The notes below the pieces were generated by a model. That model was not told the origin of the DNA. It saw only the letters and a program-made list of their open reading frames with translations, and made no database searches. Shown here piece after piece: positions 21,301-61,270 of a DNA stretch of 64,000 nucleotides. How positions within the stretch are numbered: the first letter of the stretch is position 1; every line of letters starts with the position of its first letter. The translations under genes and the position numbers were made by a program. This stretch comes from Mytilus galloprovincialis (taxonomy: Eukaryota > Mollusca > Bivalvia > Mytilida > Mytilidae), in contig NC_134847.1 in NCBI RefSeq assembly GCF_965363235.1, forward strand, positions 54,902,439-54,966,438, written 5' to 3'.

Positions 21301-24300
21301 TGTAATTATACAAGTGAATTTTATTTATTTGTATAGGTAAAGAAAATATTGCCAGAGTTGTGTCCCTTAGACATTCAGATTTTTTTTTACTTGTAGAAGT
21401 AGAAAAGTCATCCTTTCTTTTTTTAATGAATTCTTATGATTTCTTTGCTCTAATAGAATTAAAATTATCTGCCCTTTGCAGACGGCTTAACTAATCATTT
21501 AAGTGTAATTTCATGGACAATGAAAATCCCATTTGCCTGTTATCTTCAGAACACTGCTCATTTACAATCCCTACAGGAGCAATTTTTGAAGGCCTTGCGA
21601 AAAGATCTTGCAAATATCTTTGCGCAATCAGTTTCTTTGTTGAATTAATGAGATGAAACATTGAACTCTGATAAAAAAAAATAGAGCAAACCCGGAAAAA
21701 ATCATTAAAGGCATGAATTTACATCTCAAAACTTGAGGACTTTTGTGGAATTGTAAGAAAATTACAAGTAAATTTTTGAGAATTACGATACGATATTTTC
21801 TTACAGGAAATATTTAAGTTTTTACTTTTTAACTTTTAAAGTAATTCTATATTACGGTTACAGCAGTACTCGAGTTATTTGCGATGAAATAATAATTACT
21901 GTTTTACGTCTTATTGTGTACTACTTATAAAAGGGGAATGCTGATTGTGTAAGTCAAAATAAAAGCACATGTTCGACTTGTTAAACTGTTTTGCGGAAAC
22001 TCAGTTAATTAATTCGACAAATTAATCGTCTATCTTCAGATAGTTTTCTCCTGTCTGGTTTGTTGATCTACCTGTACAAGCTCAGGTACAAGTGATTAGC
22101 GATTTTAATCCAGATATCCCTCAGGTGTTATAACCTTAATGGATTATAATATAAAAAAAAGCCTAAGGGTTATGCAATTACATGCATTTGATTATAATTG
22201 CTAAAAAATATGGCGTCAGACTATAAACGTTAACAGTTTTGAACTATGGTGGAAGACATTATAAAGATGGTGCGTGTTATGAGACGATGGCGCAAGACAT
22301 TTGAACAATGGTGGGGCGCCATCGTTAAACAGGCCATGGAGATCCCTGTTCAAGTAAATAAAAATAACTTGTACAAGTAGTACCCCTGACTGTAAGATAT
22401 GGTAAACATGTGGAAAAAGTTACATTAATTTTAAGATCTGTATACTTTTTGGTGATGAAATGGATCTTATCATACCTTTGTAAAAAAAAAGTGGGGGTGG
22501 GGGGGGGTTCACATGTCTTGCTGTATCTTAGAAACTATTTATAATTACTGCATAAAACTTCACACACAATACAACGGGCGTATGATGCGCTCCTGGCACA
22601 GATGTTTATTTTATATTTGAATACAAACATAACAAAGGTAATGTACAAACTTCCACAGTTTGATCTTATAAACCTTTGAAATTCTTATTTATGTATATCT
22701 ATATTTTCCTGCAGTTCAAAGAAAAGCAGGAAAATATTTTATTGACATGATGGGTAATATGCTTATGAAATACAGCGGTGGGCTTTACAACCGCTCATCA
22801 CATTCATTGGAGATGGTATGAAATATGGCGTTGGGCTGTGGGAAAATTGATATTTATTTTGAGTTGTTTCTTTATAGGCATATTGATAATGCCAAAGGAT
22901 TTGTGTAAAGATCAAAGTTATATAGACTCAAGGAAGTTTTGACAAAAATGTAAAAATTTCACACCTTGAACCACACATTTTCTCGGAAATTTCATAGGAT
23001 ATATATATATATAGCAGTTCGACAAACGCTAATTTTGATCAATGAGAAGCTTAATATTTTCTTTACAATACATCATGATTTAAACGTTTAGCTGATTTTT
23101 ACAGAGTTATCTCCCTATAGTGTAATTGATACATGTATTTGTTATATCAATCATGTTGACCTTACCTGTTATTCCTGTCTTGACCTTACATTTTATTTTC
23201 TGAAGCTATGAAATAAAATACTTAAAGCTGTTTCCTAAACATAGAAATGTTTATGTTTTAAATTTATGAGTATCAATCTTTCTTTAAATGGCCAAGAAAA
23301 CCAAAGGTTATGTCCCCTTGAAAATGGATGTGTGAGTTTTTGTTTCATCGGAAAAGTGTTATAAATTTCTTATATCTAAACTTTCTGGTGCCAATTTTCA
23401 AGATATTCTTATGGTATATACCAAATGATGGATATGTGAGTAAATTTCGCAAACTTAATTTCAAAACAATCTAGTATTTGTGATATTTGTGATATATATA
23501 CATGTCCATTTGTTGACATCTTGAACGGAACTCACAAAAATGTCGAAGATAAACAGACAGTTATCTATACATTTTTTCACCAAGGGACTCAAAGGGATAT
23601 CCCATGATGATGTATTGTCAGAAATTGCTATGGTAATTGATATTGAGGATGTATTATCAATTCAAATCACTGAAAAAGACTGCATAGTAACCCTAAAAAA
23701 CCCTGAAAGTAAAGACAGGCTAGCGGCTCAAGGCATCGCACTAAGAGACAGATCGGTTAAATTTTACGAAGTAGAGAGTTTAATTACTCATGTAACGATA
23801 AAAGACGCACCTTATGAACTAGACAACTTATATATTGTTGCTCAGATGCTTAGATTTGGTAAGGTGGTTCCAGGCTCTTTAAAACGAGGCGTTATCAAAG
23901 GCACAAACATCGAAAATGGGTCTCGGTATATTGATATTTTGGAATGTGATACAGTGCTTCCGAATAGAACATCTTTTGGTCGTTTTGAAGTAAGACTTTT
24001 TGCTGATAACAATCGCACTCCATGTATTTATTGTCATATCACAGGTCATCCTTCATACAGATGTAAGGACAAACCAAGTCTCATGAATCAAAAGAGATGT
24101 TACAATTGTTGTGGTATAGGTCACGTAGCTAGCGCCTGTACAAGTGAAGCCTACTGCTCTTACTGTAACGCCAATGGTCACGCCAGACGAGACTGTGAAC
24201 AGTACAAACAGGAAACAGAAAAAAAGGAATTGGGCAGTTATGGTCCTGAAATATTAGAGGGTAGACAAGACAATACAAAAAACATTCACACTGACGAAGA

Positions 24301-27300
24301 CGACAAGGAATCCATCGCATCAGACAACACAAATTGTGAACGAGAGACGGTGTCTGTTCTCCTTGGAGCATCTAATTGCATTAGGCTGGGTCATATCGAC
24401 GATTCGGTAGTGAACGCTTCAATATCTGGAGGATCCTTTGACAAAATTGAACAAAACATTGATCTAGCTTTTCAAAAAACTGAAAACAAAGATATTGAAA
24501 AGGTTGTTATCTGTCTAGGCACAAACGACATAAGTAGAAATAAAAGTGACTCTGATCAAATAAACCTTCTTGTAACAAGCGCTGTCAATCGTGTAAAGTC
24601 TAGCTTTCCAGAGGCACAGATAGGCCTTTGCAATATCATACCGCGAAAAGGCAACGGCGCTCAGTTTCAGAAAATAAATGAAACAACCAAAAACGTAAAT
24701 AGTTTCATGAAAAAACTTTGTGTTCGAGAACAATTTGTAGCATTTGTTGATATAAATGATCAATTTTATAAACACGGAGCTGTAATCAGAACGTTGTTTG
24801 ATAAAAATGACAGTAGTGGGGTACACGTCAGCACAGAGGGCGCACAAAGAATTAACAGTAAACTGTGTGAGTTTCTAAATAGCCCAAACACAAACGTCGT
24901 CGTATCAAACACTCCGATTGATCGAAAACGCAACAGAAGTGACAAAACTACTCCAACATCTGCAGACCGGACATCCAAAGTATCAAGAAAAGAGACAGGA
25001 ATAGATCATGATTAAACCCATGTGAATAAACACTCAGACTACTTAATCTGATTTTAATGTTAAAAAACAAATATTTAAAAAAAACAAAACAAACAAAAAC
25101 AAACAAACAAAAAACAAAAATGTATCACTGTAAATATTATGTCCACTTTTTTAAACATATTTTTCGTATGTATATGTTATTTAAAAATAATTCGTTTATA
25201 TGCCTATATGTATATATTGCAAAAAGTGCAAACATTGCTAAGCTATACCAAACTGTATTGTTAAATATTGAGAAGATGAATAAGTATCTGTTTATTATAC
25301 CTTTTACGGTTTTTAAACGACGCTTAGTATTGTTATATGATGAGAACATGAATGAGTATCTGTTTATTACACCTTATACGGTTTTTAAACGACGCTTTAT
25401 GATTAAAGTTTTACCTGATTTGTTTACACAAAGGTATACACATAAACGATCCGTTAAGTTTATTGTTCCAAATAGATATAATCAGGTTCAAAGCATTCAA
25501 GTGAAACATTTAAATGACGAAAGAAAGAAACAAAAAACTATTCGATCTTAATATGTCTTTGTCAATTGCTTCTATAAACGTAAATGGTTTACGAAACAAT
25601 AAAAAACGAGATATGATTTTTAATTGGTTAGTTTTAAAAAAGTTCGATATTATTTGTCTTCAAGAAACACATTGTTCAAAATCTGATATTGATAACTGGG
25701 GTAATGACTGGAAAAAATTTGGGGGAGGGGAATCAGTTTGGAATTGCGGAACTTCTGATTCAAGGGGAGTGGGATTCCTATTGCAAAAGAATTTTTCCGA
25801 AAATGTAACTTTTATAAATCACGATGAAAACGGAAGATGTCAAATGTGTGACATAAAAAAAGATAATGCTGTATATCATATTATTAATGTATATACACCG
25901 AACAACGGTTCCGATAGAAAGACTTTTTACGAAAATTTGCGCAACTTAAATAAAGTGTATGACGATGATAGCGTTGAACACTACACCGTATTATTGGGAG
26001 ACTTTAATTGTACTTTAGACAAAAAAATAGACAGAATGCCATCACATCAAAATAATGACGTCGGTACAATTGAATTAAAAAATCTTTTATTGAGATATGA
26101 ATTAGATGATATATGGAGATCTCGATTTCCAGATACAAAACGTTATACGTTTCAGAGAGGAAACTCTAAGTCTCGTATAGATTTTATTTTCTGCAGCAAA
26201 TCGTTGAATAGTAAAATATTTAACACTCGTATATCTCATTTCCCATTTAGTGATCACGAAATAGTTACATCAAAAATTAAGTTAGATGATATAGAAAGAG
26301 GGCCGGGTATGTGGATTATGAACTTAAATACAATTAAATCTGAGCAGTTTTCAAATGCTTTTAAAATCTTTTGGGAAGGATGGAAAAATAGTAAAGACAA
26401 ATATAATGATATACAAGAATGGTGGGATATTACCAAAAGTAAAATAAAATTTCTAACAATTGATGTAAGTAAAACACTAAATCGAGTATATAATAACAAT
26501 CACATTAAAAAACTTGAAAAACAACTCGAAGCATTAAAATTAGTAGAGGAAAAAACAAGTATCACCAATTCTAGAATAACCGAAATTGAAAGCGAAATTA
26601 AGGATATTTATACAAATTTGACAGAATCTGCGAAAATTAGGGCAAAAATTAAATGGTCAGAAGAAGGTGAAAAATCAACGAAATATTTTTTTAGTTTAGA
26701 AAAGAAAAATGGCCAAAACAAGTTATGGAATCGTATAAAAACAAAAACGGGTGAATATAAATATGATATTGATTCGATATTAAAAGAACAAGTAAATTTC
26801 TATTCCACACTTTTTACGGCTGAAGGGTGGGACAAAAATAGCGGTGAAAAGCTTTGCCAATTTATTGAAAATAAGGTAAGTTCGGACGATAAGGAGATGC
26901 TTGATAGTAATATAAATATGGAAGAATTAGAAAAAGTGCTCAAAGATCTCAAGACTAACAAATCACCAGGTGAGGATGGCATTATATCTGAATTTTACAT
27001 ACTGTATTGGGATATATTAAAAAATGATTTTTTCACACTCCTTCAAGAAATATTTGATAAAAATGTCTTAAGTAAATCACAACATAAAGGGGTTCTTACG
27101 TTATTACATAAGGGTGGTGAAAGGGAAAATATTAAAAATTGGAGACCTCTTACATTACTTAACACCGATTATAAAATCATAGCAAAACTTCTTGCAATGA
27201 GACTGAAAAAAGTCTTACCGAAAATAATACATTCAGATCAAAAAGGGTTTGTAAAAGGAAGAAACATTAGTGATGCTAACAGATTAATTCAAGATATAAT

Positions 27301-30300
27301 AGACTATATTGACAACGAAGATGAAGATGGAATAATAATATTTCTTGATCAACAAAAAGCTTTTGATAGGGTTGAATGGGAATGGGTGGATTTTGTATTA
27401 GAAAAGTTTAATTTTGGGGGGAAATTTAGACAATGGATTAAAATGTTACTCTATGATGCTATTACTTGTATAAAAACAAATGGACATGTTTCAAAATATT
27501 TTTCGATAACACGTTCGGCCAGACAGGGCTGTCCAATAGCACCCCTTATATATATTTTGCAAGCAGAACCAATGGCATGTGCAATACGAGGTAACAAGGA
27601 AATTGAAGGAATTCAAATACCTGGTGAGGGGGGAAAAAGTATAGAAACTAAATTATGCATGTTTGCTGATGACACTCAGCTTTTTAACAAAAATGAGAAA
27701 TCAGTAGAAAAATCTTTTGATGTCCTAACGCTATACGAAAAAGCTTCGGGATCTAAAATTAATTTTGATAAAACCAAAGGTTTACTTATAGGATCTCTTA
27801 AAAGGAAAAAACTAAAATTTAATAAAATTAAATGGATTACAGGTAGTGTAAAAACCCTCGGAGTAAATCACGGATATGAAATTGATAATGATGCTATATG
27901 GCAAAGTATAATAGAAAAGATTAAAAACTGTGTCCACGTTTGGAAAAGCAGGAAACTTTCATTTAGTGGTAAAACCTTAATTGTAAAAAATTTCATATTG
28001 CCCATGTGTAGTTATGAAATTGAAATGCGGGGAATTCTTGAAAAATATTCAAAAGAAATAAACAATAATATTTGGAATTTTATATGGGATGGGAAAGTTA
28101 ACCAAATAGAAAGACAGGTTTGTTGTCTTGATATAACAAAGGGCGGAATGGGCATGATTAGTATAGACTTATTCATTAGAAGTAAACAAATAAAGTCTCT
28201 TTATCGCATTCTCCATGAACCATTAGAAAGCTGGAATGCGATTGGCAAGTATTGGCTTCGACACTTTGACAACAAGTATAATGATCAGTATTTTTTATGT
28301 AAATGTTCAAATATTAAAGGACTAAATATTAAAAATATTCCTTTATTTTATCAGAAAATGATTTTTACATGGTCTAATTTTCTAAAAATTGGAGATAATC
28401 CCAAAACTAAGAACGAGGTACTTAATATGAGACTATTTGGTAATTCAAAAATTTCATTTCAAAATAAGCCATTGTTTTTTTCTTCCTTTCTAAATAGTAA
28501 CATGAAATATATCAAAGACATATGGAATGTAGAAACCAACAAATTTAACAGTTGTTGTTCTATATTTGAAAAACTTGTAGATAAAAGAAACTGCATATCG
28601 GAATTTTCAAGAATTAAAAGTGCAATACCAATTGACTTCTTACAAATGTTAGAAATTGATAATGAAATTAATAAGAAACCAAACATAGAATTGAAACTTT
28701 CTAATGAAATGGTTATATTAGACAGATTTGGGAAAACAATCAAACCAAAAGAATTAAAACTAAAATATATTCGAGACATGATTAATAAGAATATATATCC
28801 AAAATGTCAACTTAAATGGCAAGAATTTTATGGCCACGAAATTAATTGGAAAATAGTATGGGGCAATTTGAAAAAAGTTAAAATCACCAATAAAATGAAA
28901 GAATTTCAATGGAAATGCATTCACAATATCATATATACGGAAAGTAGACTTAAAAAAATGCAATTGTCAAACGGAAAATGTCATATTTGCCAAACTGTAA
29001 ATAATACTGAAAGTCTGCAACATTTATTTTTCGATTGTAATACAACAAAATTAATCATTAGTAAAATCAAAGATATTTTTACATTATGGAATATTCAATT
29101 AGATGATGATAATTTAAAACAGTTTATGCTTTTGGGAGATAGCAGTGGTCACTCGAACCAAAATTTACTTGTAAATCTATTTTTTATTTTGACAAAATGG
29201 TCCTTGTGGAAAATAAGAAACAAAATTAAATATGATGGGATAAAAATGTCCTCTACATATATTTTAAATCTTTGGAAATCATACATGGTAACACATCTGA
29301 AATCTGTACCCTGTTACTTATCAATTAATACATTAGACAAAGAGAAAATAAACACATTAATTAATTTCATACTATAAGTACATACCTTGCAGGAGATAGC
29401 AGTCATGTTGTCTGTTTTTTTTTTATATCTCTTTAATTTATATTGATTACGGTAATCCATGGTTTAAAGATGCACTCGATTATGTTAAAATGTTATGTGA
29501 ATCTGGTTTATAGGTGCACTCGTTTATGTTTATATAATGTTATATTATTTACCACTAGTAGTACATTCTATAAAGATATTCCTTTTTCACTCATTGTCAT
29601 ATAAAAGAATATAAGTATTATTACATGTATACTATTTTTTTTCGGATAATATAGTGCACATTTTTCAACCTCCTGCTTCCCGGACAGTTTGCTTAAATGT
29701 AAACGGGAATCCACAGTTTGCATCCTGGGCAACTGAGGAAATTGTAAACAGGAAATATTTGGAATAAACAAGTATCAATTTAAAAAAAAAAAAAAAAAAA
29801 AAAAAGAAAACCAAAGGTTATTTCAGTACTTACAAACTTAATCCCTTGATATAAGATTAATATATATTTATTTAATTTTTAATTCAACATGTTTCTAAAC
29901 CTGTCTGCATATATACAACTTTTTTCCATTGATTGTGTCTGTCTATAAAACTTTATTAACACTGGTTCATATTTGGAAGAAACTTATACCTGAAAGAAAG
30001 TTAAAATGTTCTCTTTTTATTGCATGTGTTGATAACCAATCATACAAATGTAGAATTGTGCTAATATATGTAATATAGGTTTGGTAATACATGTAATACT
30101 TGTGAATATGAGATGTTTATCTTCAGAGACCACCACAAGTATCTGAATATTCAAATTTTTTTCAGTAATTTGATTGTGTCTTTTAATTTAAATAGTTCAT
30201 GAGACTGGTTCAAGTTTGGAAGAAAGTCATACCTTAAGGATTCTTGACTAAGTTCTTTTTTTTGTTAACATAGTAATAGTGTAACTTTTGAATATAATAT

Positions 30301-60039: not shown

Positions 60040-60489
60040 GTTAAATAAGATGTGAGGCTGCCTCTGTATCTTCTATATTTAACAGTCTTATTAGTAGGAT
60101 ATTCCAGTCTTTGATGGTACGTGGAAAGAAGCTGTATTTGTAGGTGTTTGTTGAAGTTTGGAGGATTCTAAATTTACTTTGGTGGTATCGCCGTGTTGTC
60201 CTGCCTTGTTGTTCTACCTAATCTGGAATATTTATGGCTAATTTTTTTATGTAAAGCTTTGTGAAACAAGCAAAGCATTTTTATTTTCCGTCTAGTCTCT
60301 AATGATGGTAGTTTTAGCTCATTCAGTAGGCTAGTAACTGACCCAGGTTCTGTGCTGTATTGATGTTTGATGAAACGTGCTGATCTTCTTTGTACAATTT
60401 CTATCTGTTTGATGTGGTTTTCCTGATATGGATCATCCAATTTATCCAGATCTTTTTGTAATTAGTCATCTTTGAATTTTATTGCTAGG

Positions 60490-60740
60490 TATAATCGGCA
60501 AAGAGACGAAATTTTAAATTTTTCGAAAAAAAAACCCTAAGGATTTTCTTATCCCAGGCATAGATTACCTTAGCCGTATTTGACACAACTTTTTGGAATT
60601 TTGGATCTTCAATGCTCTTCAACTTTGTACTTGTTTGGCTTAATAAATAATTTGATATGAGCGTCACTGATGAGTCTTATGTAGACGAAACGCGCGTCTG
60701 GCGTAATAAATTATAGTCCTGGTACATTTGATAACTATTT
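60490..60740 (+). mobile_element. Short repeat carrying a hammerhead ribozyme (retrozyme-like)
   Basis: A bivalve repeat ('cccaggcatagattacctta', 'acaactttttggaattttgg', 'cttcaactttgtacttgttt') interrupts the LINE between its RT core and C-terminal part. It ends with the hammerhead motif at 60661-60704 and 'tagtcctggtacatttgata'. It has no ORF. Exact ends and target duplication could not be fixed. Confidence 0.6.
60661..60704 (+). ncRNA. Type I hammerhead ribozyme motif
   Basis: The core CUGAUGA (60667-60673) is followed by stem II GUC-uuaugua-GAC (60674-60686), GAAA (60687-60690), and stem III ACGC/GCGU (60690-60697) with C17 at 60698. Stem I pairs GCGUCA (60661-60666) with UGGCGU (60699-60704), two of six pairs being G-U. 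Predicted cleavage lies between 60698 and 60699. Stem III is a loopless palindrome, which in known short-stem-III hammerheads favours a dimeric active form. All conserved core bases are present. Confidence 0.8.
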
Positions 60741-61270
60741 GACTTGATGTCATCCCCAATATCATTGATATACAAAAGAAACATCAATGGGCCTAAAACT
60801 GTACCTTGTGGTACTCCTGATTTTACAAAGGCATTTGTAGATGTTTCACCTTCAACTACTACACACTGTTGTCGTTGTGTGAGCCAGGTTTTTACCCACT
60901 CTATTATTTTCCCATTTATTCCATAGTGCTCTAATTTCCACAGAAGCCGTATAAGGGGAAACATTACATCAAATGCTTTGCTGAAATGTAATATAAGCAA
61001 ACCCACTTGCTCTTTTTTATCTAGTTGTTTTTGCGATATCTTCAATTGTTGTTACTCATTGAGATTCGCATGCTCTTTTCTGTTTGGAGCCATATTGGTA
61101 ATCGACTAACATAATGTGTTTGAAAATGATGTGTTCCATGAGTTTGTATGTTACTGACGTCAATGAAACAGGTATATAATTTACTGGAAAGCTTTTGTCT
61201 CCCTTTATATTTTGTTTTGGTTGACTTGATGTATTTTTATCAGTAAAAACAGATACAAATTGATGGTTAA

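What the first reader, a model, noticed from the sequence alone, without database searches (positions are those of the whole stretch)
60661..60704. Hammerhead ribozyme in a short non-coding bivalve repeat
All core nucleotides of a type I hammerhead are present (CUGAUGA, GAAA, cleavage triplet GUC), with consistent stems I and II and a loopless palindromic stem III (ACGCGCGU). The host repeat is short and has no ORF, matching the idea of retrozymes: non-autonomous retroelements spread through circular RNA, reported for bivalves and other metazoans. Only one ribozyme copy is seen here, whereas retrozymes usually come as repeats with a ribozyme in each unit.
Basis: partly seen in the sequence, partly recalled or inferred. 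Interest (0 to 1): 0.75.

Follow-up and report, generated by a model that had tools for sequence, protein, structure and literature searches.

The report
Truncated copy of a mussel retrozyme
This is a broken-off copy of a small RNA-cutting mobile repeat that is abundant in a mussel-like genome, and comparing its copies suggests where copying of its circular RNA back into DNA begins, which had been an open question.

Summary
The hammerhead is real. Rfam Hammerhead_1 scores 33.0 bits at exactly 60661-60704 (cut-off 34). The genome holds 19,765 exact-core matches against 0 for the reversed pattern. It lies in a 228-bp copy (60513-60740) of a ~355-bp tandem repeat that carries hammerheads. Eleven of 11 fetched paralogues of the host reverse-transcriptase fragment show the site empty. 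This matches the mussel retrozymes of Cervera and de la Pena 2020 (PMC7229834). The single ribozyme is explained: the copy is 5'-truncated, under one turn of the unit.

What I did not see in print is the anatomy of the ends. 57 of 68 distinct 3' ends fall within the same 4 nt, 42 nt past the ribozyme cut (37 of 44 without the tail-picked sample). The 72 5' ends are scattered, long target-site duplications are absent, and units of one array are mostly alike. Most likely reverse transcription starts at one internal site of the circular RNA, goes round it and stops anywhere, resembling internal initiation shown in vitro for an Anolis Penelope-like element (PMC11167929). The helper was not found in 18 LINE-type and 25 Penelope-like stretches.

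The parts
60513..60740 (+). Retrozyme copy: part A (positions 1-222) of the ~355-bp A+B unit, 93% identical to reference unit L012, truncated at its 5' end; part B (133 bp) absent
   Evidence: blastn; 5' boundary uncertain by a few bases, 3' boundary by ~3 bases because host and element share TTT
60661..60704 (+). Type I hammerhead ribozyme
   Evidence: Rfam RF00163, 33.0 bits, model 1-45/45
60667..60673 (+). Core CUGAUGA
   Evidence: sequence; alignment
60687..60690 (+). Core GAAA
   Evidence: sequence; alignment
60690..60697 (+). Stem III, palindrome ACGCGCGU
   Evidence: sequence
60696..60698 (+). Cleavage triplet GUC; predicted cut after 60698
   Evidence: sequence; established hammerhead chemistry
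60699..60740 (+). 42-nt stretch between the ribozyme cut and the inferred start site of reverse transcription (family end GATAACTATTT)
   Evidence: cut at unit position 180; 57 of 68 distinct 3' ends at unit positions 219-222
60290..60512 (-). Host: degenerate LINE-type reverse-transcriptase fragment, left of the insertion (tested stretch only; RT identity read by eye from its reverse complement)
   Evidence: 42 matches; empty sites
60741..60990 (-). Host: the same fragment, right of the insertion (tested stretch only)
   Evidence: 33 matches; empty sites

Best explanation
The feature is a 5'-truncated, probably dead genomic copy of a mussel retrozyme, a non-coding element with a self-cleaving hammerhead. 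Inferred cycle: a tandem array is transcribed, the hammerheads cut the transcript into ~355-nt units, and a host ligase closes them into circles (published for M. galloprovincialis, not tested here). A reverse transcriptase from another element starts on the circle at one fixed internal site, 42 nt past the ribozyme cut and just before domain B, which is predicted to be structured. It runs round the circle and stops at a random point. One turn or more leaves an array that can be processed again; less than one turn, as here, leaves a single-ribozyme dead end. Shown here: the ribozyme motif, the family, the mostly fixed 3' end, the scattered 5' ends, no long target-site duplication, and likeness of units within most arrays. 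Inferred: circularity of the template, the internal start, and who supplies the enzyme.
For: Ribozyme. In a sample picked by the tail, not by the ribozyme, 12 core positions differ from the column majority in 8 of 312 cells, the rest of part A in 255 of 3,791 (28 rows, one unit per locus). 95.7% of cells pair against 17-48% in slid versions, and 5 of 12 pairs show changes on both sides, mainly in two related sequences (71 of 88 distinct segments, those of 47 nt). Tandem units. 3' ends: 57 of 68 distinct ends at unit positions 219-222; by sample 20 of 26 ribozyme-picked, 17 of 18 similarity-picked, 20 of 24 tail-picked. 5' ends: 72 ends at 54 positions, 2 near the ribozyme cut, uniformity not rejected (KS p 0.08). 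Duplications: 0 of 54 of 7 nt or more, shuffled pairs 1.9%. Within-array divergence 2.1% against 7.1% between arrays; lowest of 1,000 label shuffles 5.3%. Inserts run across the cut at unit position 180, so they cannot come from a cut linear monomer started 42 nt from its 5' end. Internal initiation exists: an Anolis PLE protein starts inside its RNA, past its own hammerhead.
Against: 11 of 68 3' ends lie elsewhere. I read them as diverged tails (L083, L090, L096) or later breakage, but did not prove it. Direct repeats of 4 nt or more at the flanks are slightly more frequent than in shuffled pairs (32 of 54 against 50%), and an earlier, smaller count had 4 of 41 with 6 nt against 3.7%, so very short duplications are possible. 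In 5 of 27 arrays the units differ from each other as much as from other arrays. An uncut linear multimer ending at the tail would leave the same ends. No partner enzyme was found. No RNA data were at hand. The tail-picked sample contains the tail by construction, the similarity query included it, and 50 of the 88 loci come from the first 7.2 Mb of contig C1. Overlapping loci and several units per array are not independent, so p values are too small.
Confidence: 0.72

Rival explanations
1. The template is a linear multimeric transcript that escaped self-cleavage and whose 3' end is made at the tail (termination or processing). It is copied SINE-fashion from that end, so no circle is needed.
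For: Gives the same fixed 3' and scattered 5' ends. The Anolis PLE inserts unprocessed RNA in vitro, and ribozyme mutants of its RNA still insert. A mussel copy cleaves more slowly (about 0.1 per minute) than a coral one.
Against: At least 42% of exact tails in the genome (2,370 of 5,656) run straight on into part B, so copied RNA does pass the tail. Units of most arrays are alike down to array-specific unit lengths, e.g. all 358 bp in L010 or 359-361 bp in L032. The published predominant RNA form in mussel tissues is the circle (PMC7229834).
Confidence: 0.2
2. The repeats are ordinary satellite DNA spread by unequal crossing over or by a Helitron-like rolling-circle DNA transposon; the ribozyme is a passenger.
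For: Tandem head-to-tail arrays and no long target-site duplication.
Against: Sampled insertions at many places share one 3' end but not a 5' end. Crossing over gives no shared end across loci, and a Helitron has a fixed 5' end (recalled). The ribozyme core is better conserved than its surroundings.
Confidence: 0.04
3. A chance or dead hammerhead-like sequence with no role in the element.
For: This copy is 1 bit below the Rfam cut-off.
Against: 19,765 exact-core matches against 0 in the reversed control, core conservation, pairing kept in the stems, and published cleavage of a mussel copy.
Confidence: 0.02

Closest known systems
Mytilus galloprovincialis non-LTR retrozyme (Cervera and de la Pena 2020, PMC7229834)
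   Same: Type I hammerhead, ~350-390 bp tandem units, more than one ribozyme variant, thousands of copies, no ORF, mussel-like genome
   Different: The published sequences (MN642551-MN642576) could not be compared here. In the parts of the paper that I read (parts 1-4 of 6; passages) no fixed 3' end or 5' truncation is described ('truncat' occurs 0 times). It reports target-site duplications longer than 4 bp 'when present'; none above chance of 7 nt or more was found here.
Penelope-like elements with minimal hammerheads, e.g. Poseidon of Anolis (Frangieh 2024, PMC11167929)
   Same: A hammerhead followed within ~40-90 nt by an internal start of reverse transcription, RNA needed downstream of it, tandem insertion
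   Different: PLEs code for RT and GIY-YIG endonuclease; the retrozyme codes for nothing comparable. Mussel PLE families aligned here run into TA repeats, and sampled PLEs share no tail or domain B with the retrozyme apart from two matches read as neighbouring retrozyme copies.
Plant LTR retrozymes (PMC4918200; search listing only, details from passages of PMC7761336 and recalled)
   Same: Non-coding retroelement, hammerhead, circular RNA intermediate
   Different: Type III hammerhead, LTRs, tRNA primer site, 4-bp target duplication; not the pattern seen here.

Membership tests
Type I hammerhead ribozyme (RF00163) | Invariant core CUGANGA / GAAA / NUH with three helices | tested here: met
Type I hammerhead ribozyme (RF00163) | Covariance score at or above the curated cut-off for this copy | tested here: not met
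   33.0 against 34 bits; 29 of 37 genome matches pass, so I treat the copy as a member by homology to them, not by its own score
Type I hammerhead ribozyme (RF00163) | Self-cleavage | not testable with these tools
   bench only
Metazoan non-LTR retrozyme | Type I hammerhead in a non-coding tandem unit of ~170-400 bp | tested here: met
   family spacing 351-361 bp apart from two irregular ones
Metazoan non-LTR retrozyme | At least a dimeric arrangement of the ribozyme at this locus | tested here: not met
   one A segment, no B; only match in the 64 kb. It is a truncated, presumably non-functional copy.
Metazoan non-LTR retrozyme | Dispersed insertions (mobility) | tested here: met
   empty site in 11 of 11 host paralogues; thousands of motif matches
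Metazoan non-LTR retrozyme | Target-site duplication, when present, longer than 4 bp | tested here: inconclusive
   0 of 54 of 7 nt or more; 32 of 54 of 4 nt or more against 50% in shuffled pairs
Metazoan non-LTR retrozyme | Circular RNA intermediate | not testable with these tools
   published for the mussel (PMC7229834), no RNA data here
Penelope-like element | RT plus GIY-YIG open reading frame | tested here: not met
   no window ORF of 150 aa or more overlaps 60513-60740; PLEs exist separately in the genome
Penelope-like element (works like) | Internal start of reverse transcription past the hammerhead | tested here: inconclusive
   genomic ends fit; not shown biochemically

The most novel reading that the evidence does not exclude
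Animal retrozymes are copied from ribozyme-made RNA circles by a Penelope-type reverse transcriptase that binds a structured RNA domain and starts at a fixed internal site just upstream of it. On a circle, internal starting turns into rolling-circle reverse transcription. That would explain tandem arrays, 5' truncation and the lack of a shared 5' end, and why PLEs and retrozymes both carry hammerheads next to the start site.
Probability: 0.4. Interest if true: 0.7.

Novelty: new member of a known kind. Interest (0 to 1): 0.45.

Why it matters
[quoted passage not shown] The shared 3' end gives a single position and a candidate RNA domain to test. Insertions that cross the ribozyme cut argue from genomic DNA alone that the template was religated or uncut RNA.

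Tried and rejected
Partner search by shared 3' end. 18 stretches downstream of long RT frames that I took for LINEs (of 150 RT matches listed; fetched) carry no clear retrozyme-like end of their own. L117 holds a retrozyme copy (part A 91%, part B 89%) that I read as nested, and L122 a 32-bp tail piece on the other strand; other matches have E 0.015 or worse. Some of these stretches may not reach the element's 3' end. 25 stretches of Penelope-like elements (of 147 GIY-YIG matches; fetched, three of them 5' regions) share no tail or domain B of their own. L104 has an 84% and L108 a 73% match to part A (E 4e-42 and 4e-14), both beyond the aligned PLE end; I read them as neighbouring retrozyme copies. 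In one search the best E was 0.17. L136 stayed open to its end, so its 3' end was not reached.

Idea that part A is an LTR and B an internal region (both ends fixed): rejected, because 5' ends are scattered.

First grouping of units by shared 200-mers merged unlike arrays; replaced by genome coordinates. First core-conservation counts used one copy as reference, which inflated the background; repeated with per-column majorities and one unit per locus. First end count could count an end twice where a locus was cut; repeated with each end deduplicated by its flank. Several 5' ends at unit 223 are artefacts of the A|B query split.

Folding: B alone has z -1.8 and its first 84 nt z -2.6 against shuffles; part A has z +0.8. 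The free fold of the bare 44-nt ribozyme is not the hammerhead (-9.2 against -3.4 kcal/mol for the written structure); tertiary contacts are not modelled.

A Pol III B-box-like GGGTCGATGCC in B (78 of 103 B segments) is suggestive only; T-runs in A would stop Pol III. The box consensus is recalled.

Full report
Observation. The core bases and stems of a type I hammerhead stand at 60661-60704. Rfam Hammerhead_1 aligns over its full length at 33.0 bits, E 1.1e-5 for the 3-kb stretch, one bit under the curated cut-off; the gathering-level scan of the whole window therefore lists nothing. The own genome (1.38 Gb, 331 contigs) returned 37 matches to the same family at E <= 0.001, 29 of them over the cut-off, from 74 scored of 224,653 first-look candidates. 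The pattern CTGATGA-N(7-20)-ACGAAACGCGCGT occurs 19,765 times and its reversed control 0 times.

Anatomy. A DNA search with the surroundings gave 90 matches from 40 scored of 5,019 candidates. The 38 loci fetched include many head-to-tail arrays with hammerhead motifs spaced 351-361 bp apart, with two irregular spacings (230 in L002, 521 in L034). I divided the unit into A (222 bp, with the ribozyme) and B (133 bp). The window copy is A alone, 60513-60740, 93% identical, and is the only match in the 64 kb. It sits in a degenerate reverse-transcriptase fragment on the minus strand. Eleven of 11 fetched paralogues run through the site without an insert. Host and element share TTT at the right edge, so a duplication of a few nt cannot be excluded here.

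Ends. Three samples were used, 88 loci in all: ribozyme-picked (L001-L008, L080-L099), similarity-picked (L009-L038) and tail-picked (L039-L068). From these, 76 arrays or single copies remained after dropping 15 duplicates and 3 pieces under 60 bp; matches under 78% identity were not chained. Deduplicated by flank, 57 of 68 3' ends lie at unit positions 219-222 (37 of 44 without the tail-picked sample), while 72 5' ends fall on 54 positions with at most 11 in any 20-nt bin. The exceptions are L034, L043, L054, L063, L067, L083, L086, L087, L090, L095 and L096. The ribozyme cut is at unit position 180, so the common end is 42 nt past it. Only 2 of 72 5' ends lie near the cut. Direct repeats at the two flanks: 32 of 54 of 4 nt or more (shuffled pairs 50%), 13 of 5 or more (21%), 4 of 6 or more (6.4%), 0 of 7 or more (1.9%). 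The exact 23-nt tail occurs 5,656 times in the genome, and 2,370 of these continue exactly into B.

Lengths. Of 58 complete insertions (3' end at 209-222), 30 are shorter than one turn: 19 of 23 ribozyme-picked, 4 of 16 similarity-picked, 7 of 19 tail-picked. The ribozyme-picked figure is inflated: for I passed over places in the list that were clustered or already in hand, and fetched only about 1.1 kb each, so long arrays could not appear complete. Short copies like the window's are common, but I give no genome-wide fraction.

One template per array. Among 129 full A units in 47 arrays or single copies, mean divergence is 2.1% within arrays and 7.1% between, and the lowest of 1,000 label shuffles was 5.3%. 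In 22 of 27 multi-unit arrays the within value is lower; in 5 it is not. The nearest neighbour is in the same array for 74 of 109 units.

Ribozyme conservation. In the tail-picked sample, one unit per locus (28 rows), core positions differ from the column majority in 8 of 312 cells and the rest of A in 255 of 3,791 (Fisher p 0.0024). In the similarity-picked sample (30 rows) the figures are 0 of 360 and 94 of 4,470. Some loci overlap, so these rows are not fully independent. Of 88 distinct ribozyme segments the 71 of 47 nt were scored: 95.7% of cells pair, and 5 of 12 pairs show changes on both sides in one or two sequences each, mainly two related ones.

Mechanism. A shared 3' end with scattered 5' ends is the mark of reverse transcription that starts at one place and stops anywhere (established for non-LTR elements). 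The inserts cross the ribozyme cut, so the template was uncut or religated. A circle is the simplest template, since circles are the predominant form in mussel tissues (PMC7229834; parts 1-4 of 6 read). The same paper shows cleavage of a mussel copy (about 0.1 per minute) and partial closure by RtcB in vitro (about 30%), and names PLEs as strong candidates for the helper on grounds of shared hammerheads, tandem copies and co-existence. Frangieh 2024 (PMC11167929, parts 1-2 of 4 and passages read) shows that an Anolis PLE protein starts reverse transcription inside its RNA, at sites not homologous to the cut DNA. Its hammerhead cut lies 26 nt, and one start 111-118 nt, into the ORF, and the first 172 nt of the ORF are needed. 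By subtraction that start is about 85-92 nt past the cut, with the two starts 30-40 nt apart; here the distance is 42 nt. The layout ribozyme, start, downstream RNA domain is shared. Against a need for the circle, that PLE inserted unprocessed RNA and its ribozyme mutants still worked. The words circular and retrozyme do not occur in that paper's main text.

Partner not found. PLEs are common here (147 GIY-YIG matches from 150 scored). In the families aligned (11 of 12 loci; L109 left out) their 3' ends run into TA repeats, whereas the retrozyme flanks show only a mild preference for A at the first base (30 of 54). Apart from matches read as nested or neighbouring retrozyme copies (L104, L108, L117, L122), no retrozyme tail or domain B was found in 25 PLE and 18 LINE-type stretches. 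These are small samples of large families.

Literature. Searches were seen as listings; of the papers found I read parts or passages of PMC7229834, PMC7761336 and PMC11167929. In what I saw, none describes a fixed 3' end or internal start for animal retrozymes. The library lacks most subscription papers, and supplements were not readable. That the genome is a mussel is inferred from its size, 14 large contigs and the published element; it was not tested.

Noticed in passing
L100-L102 and L141; L103/L108/L111; L104-L107/L110: Mussel Penelope-like elements end in two lengths: a short end running into TA repeats, and one with roughly 30-40 nt (two families) or 90-100 nt (third family) more. This looks like the two-start 'tail' described for Anolis.
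   Followed up: partly
L100, L109, L137, L141: Short hammerhead-like motifs after the PLE stop codon, e.g. CTGAAGA...GAAAGCGCTA in L100. L100 and L109 were in the Rfam scan and not reported at E 0.5; L137 and L141 were not scanned. Minimal PLE hammerheads are known; the assignment here is by eye and pattern.
   Followed up: partly
window 23525-29377 (+): A LINE-type element with a GDSL-lipase-like first frame (496 aa) and a 1,287-aa frame with endonuclease, reverse transcriptase and zf-RVT domains.
   Followed up: partly
one search place list, e.g. G000:C12:53730884 (-) and 53732559 (+); C2:56110254 (-) and 56111876 (+): Several GIY-YIG frames of PLEs occur as close pairs on opposite strands, a palindromic arrangement.
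   Followed up: no
unit part B, e.g. L012 1375-1507: B contains a Pol III B-box-like GGGTCGATGCC (78 of 103 segments) 8 nt past the inferred start site, and a predicted hairpin with a TTCG loop.
   Followed up: partly
L082, L095, L096 and the GAGCATCACTGAAGAGACA... copies: More divergent retrozyme subfamilies with a tail TGATGAGTTTATTT or similar, or with swapped stem bases.
   Followed up: partly
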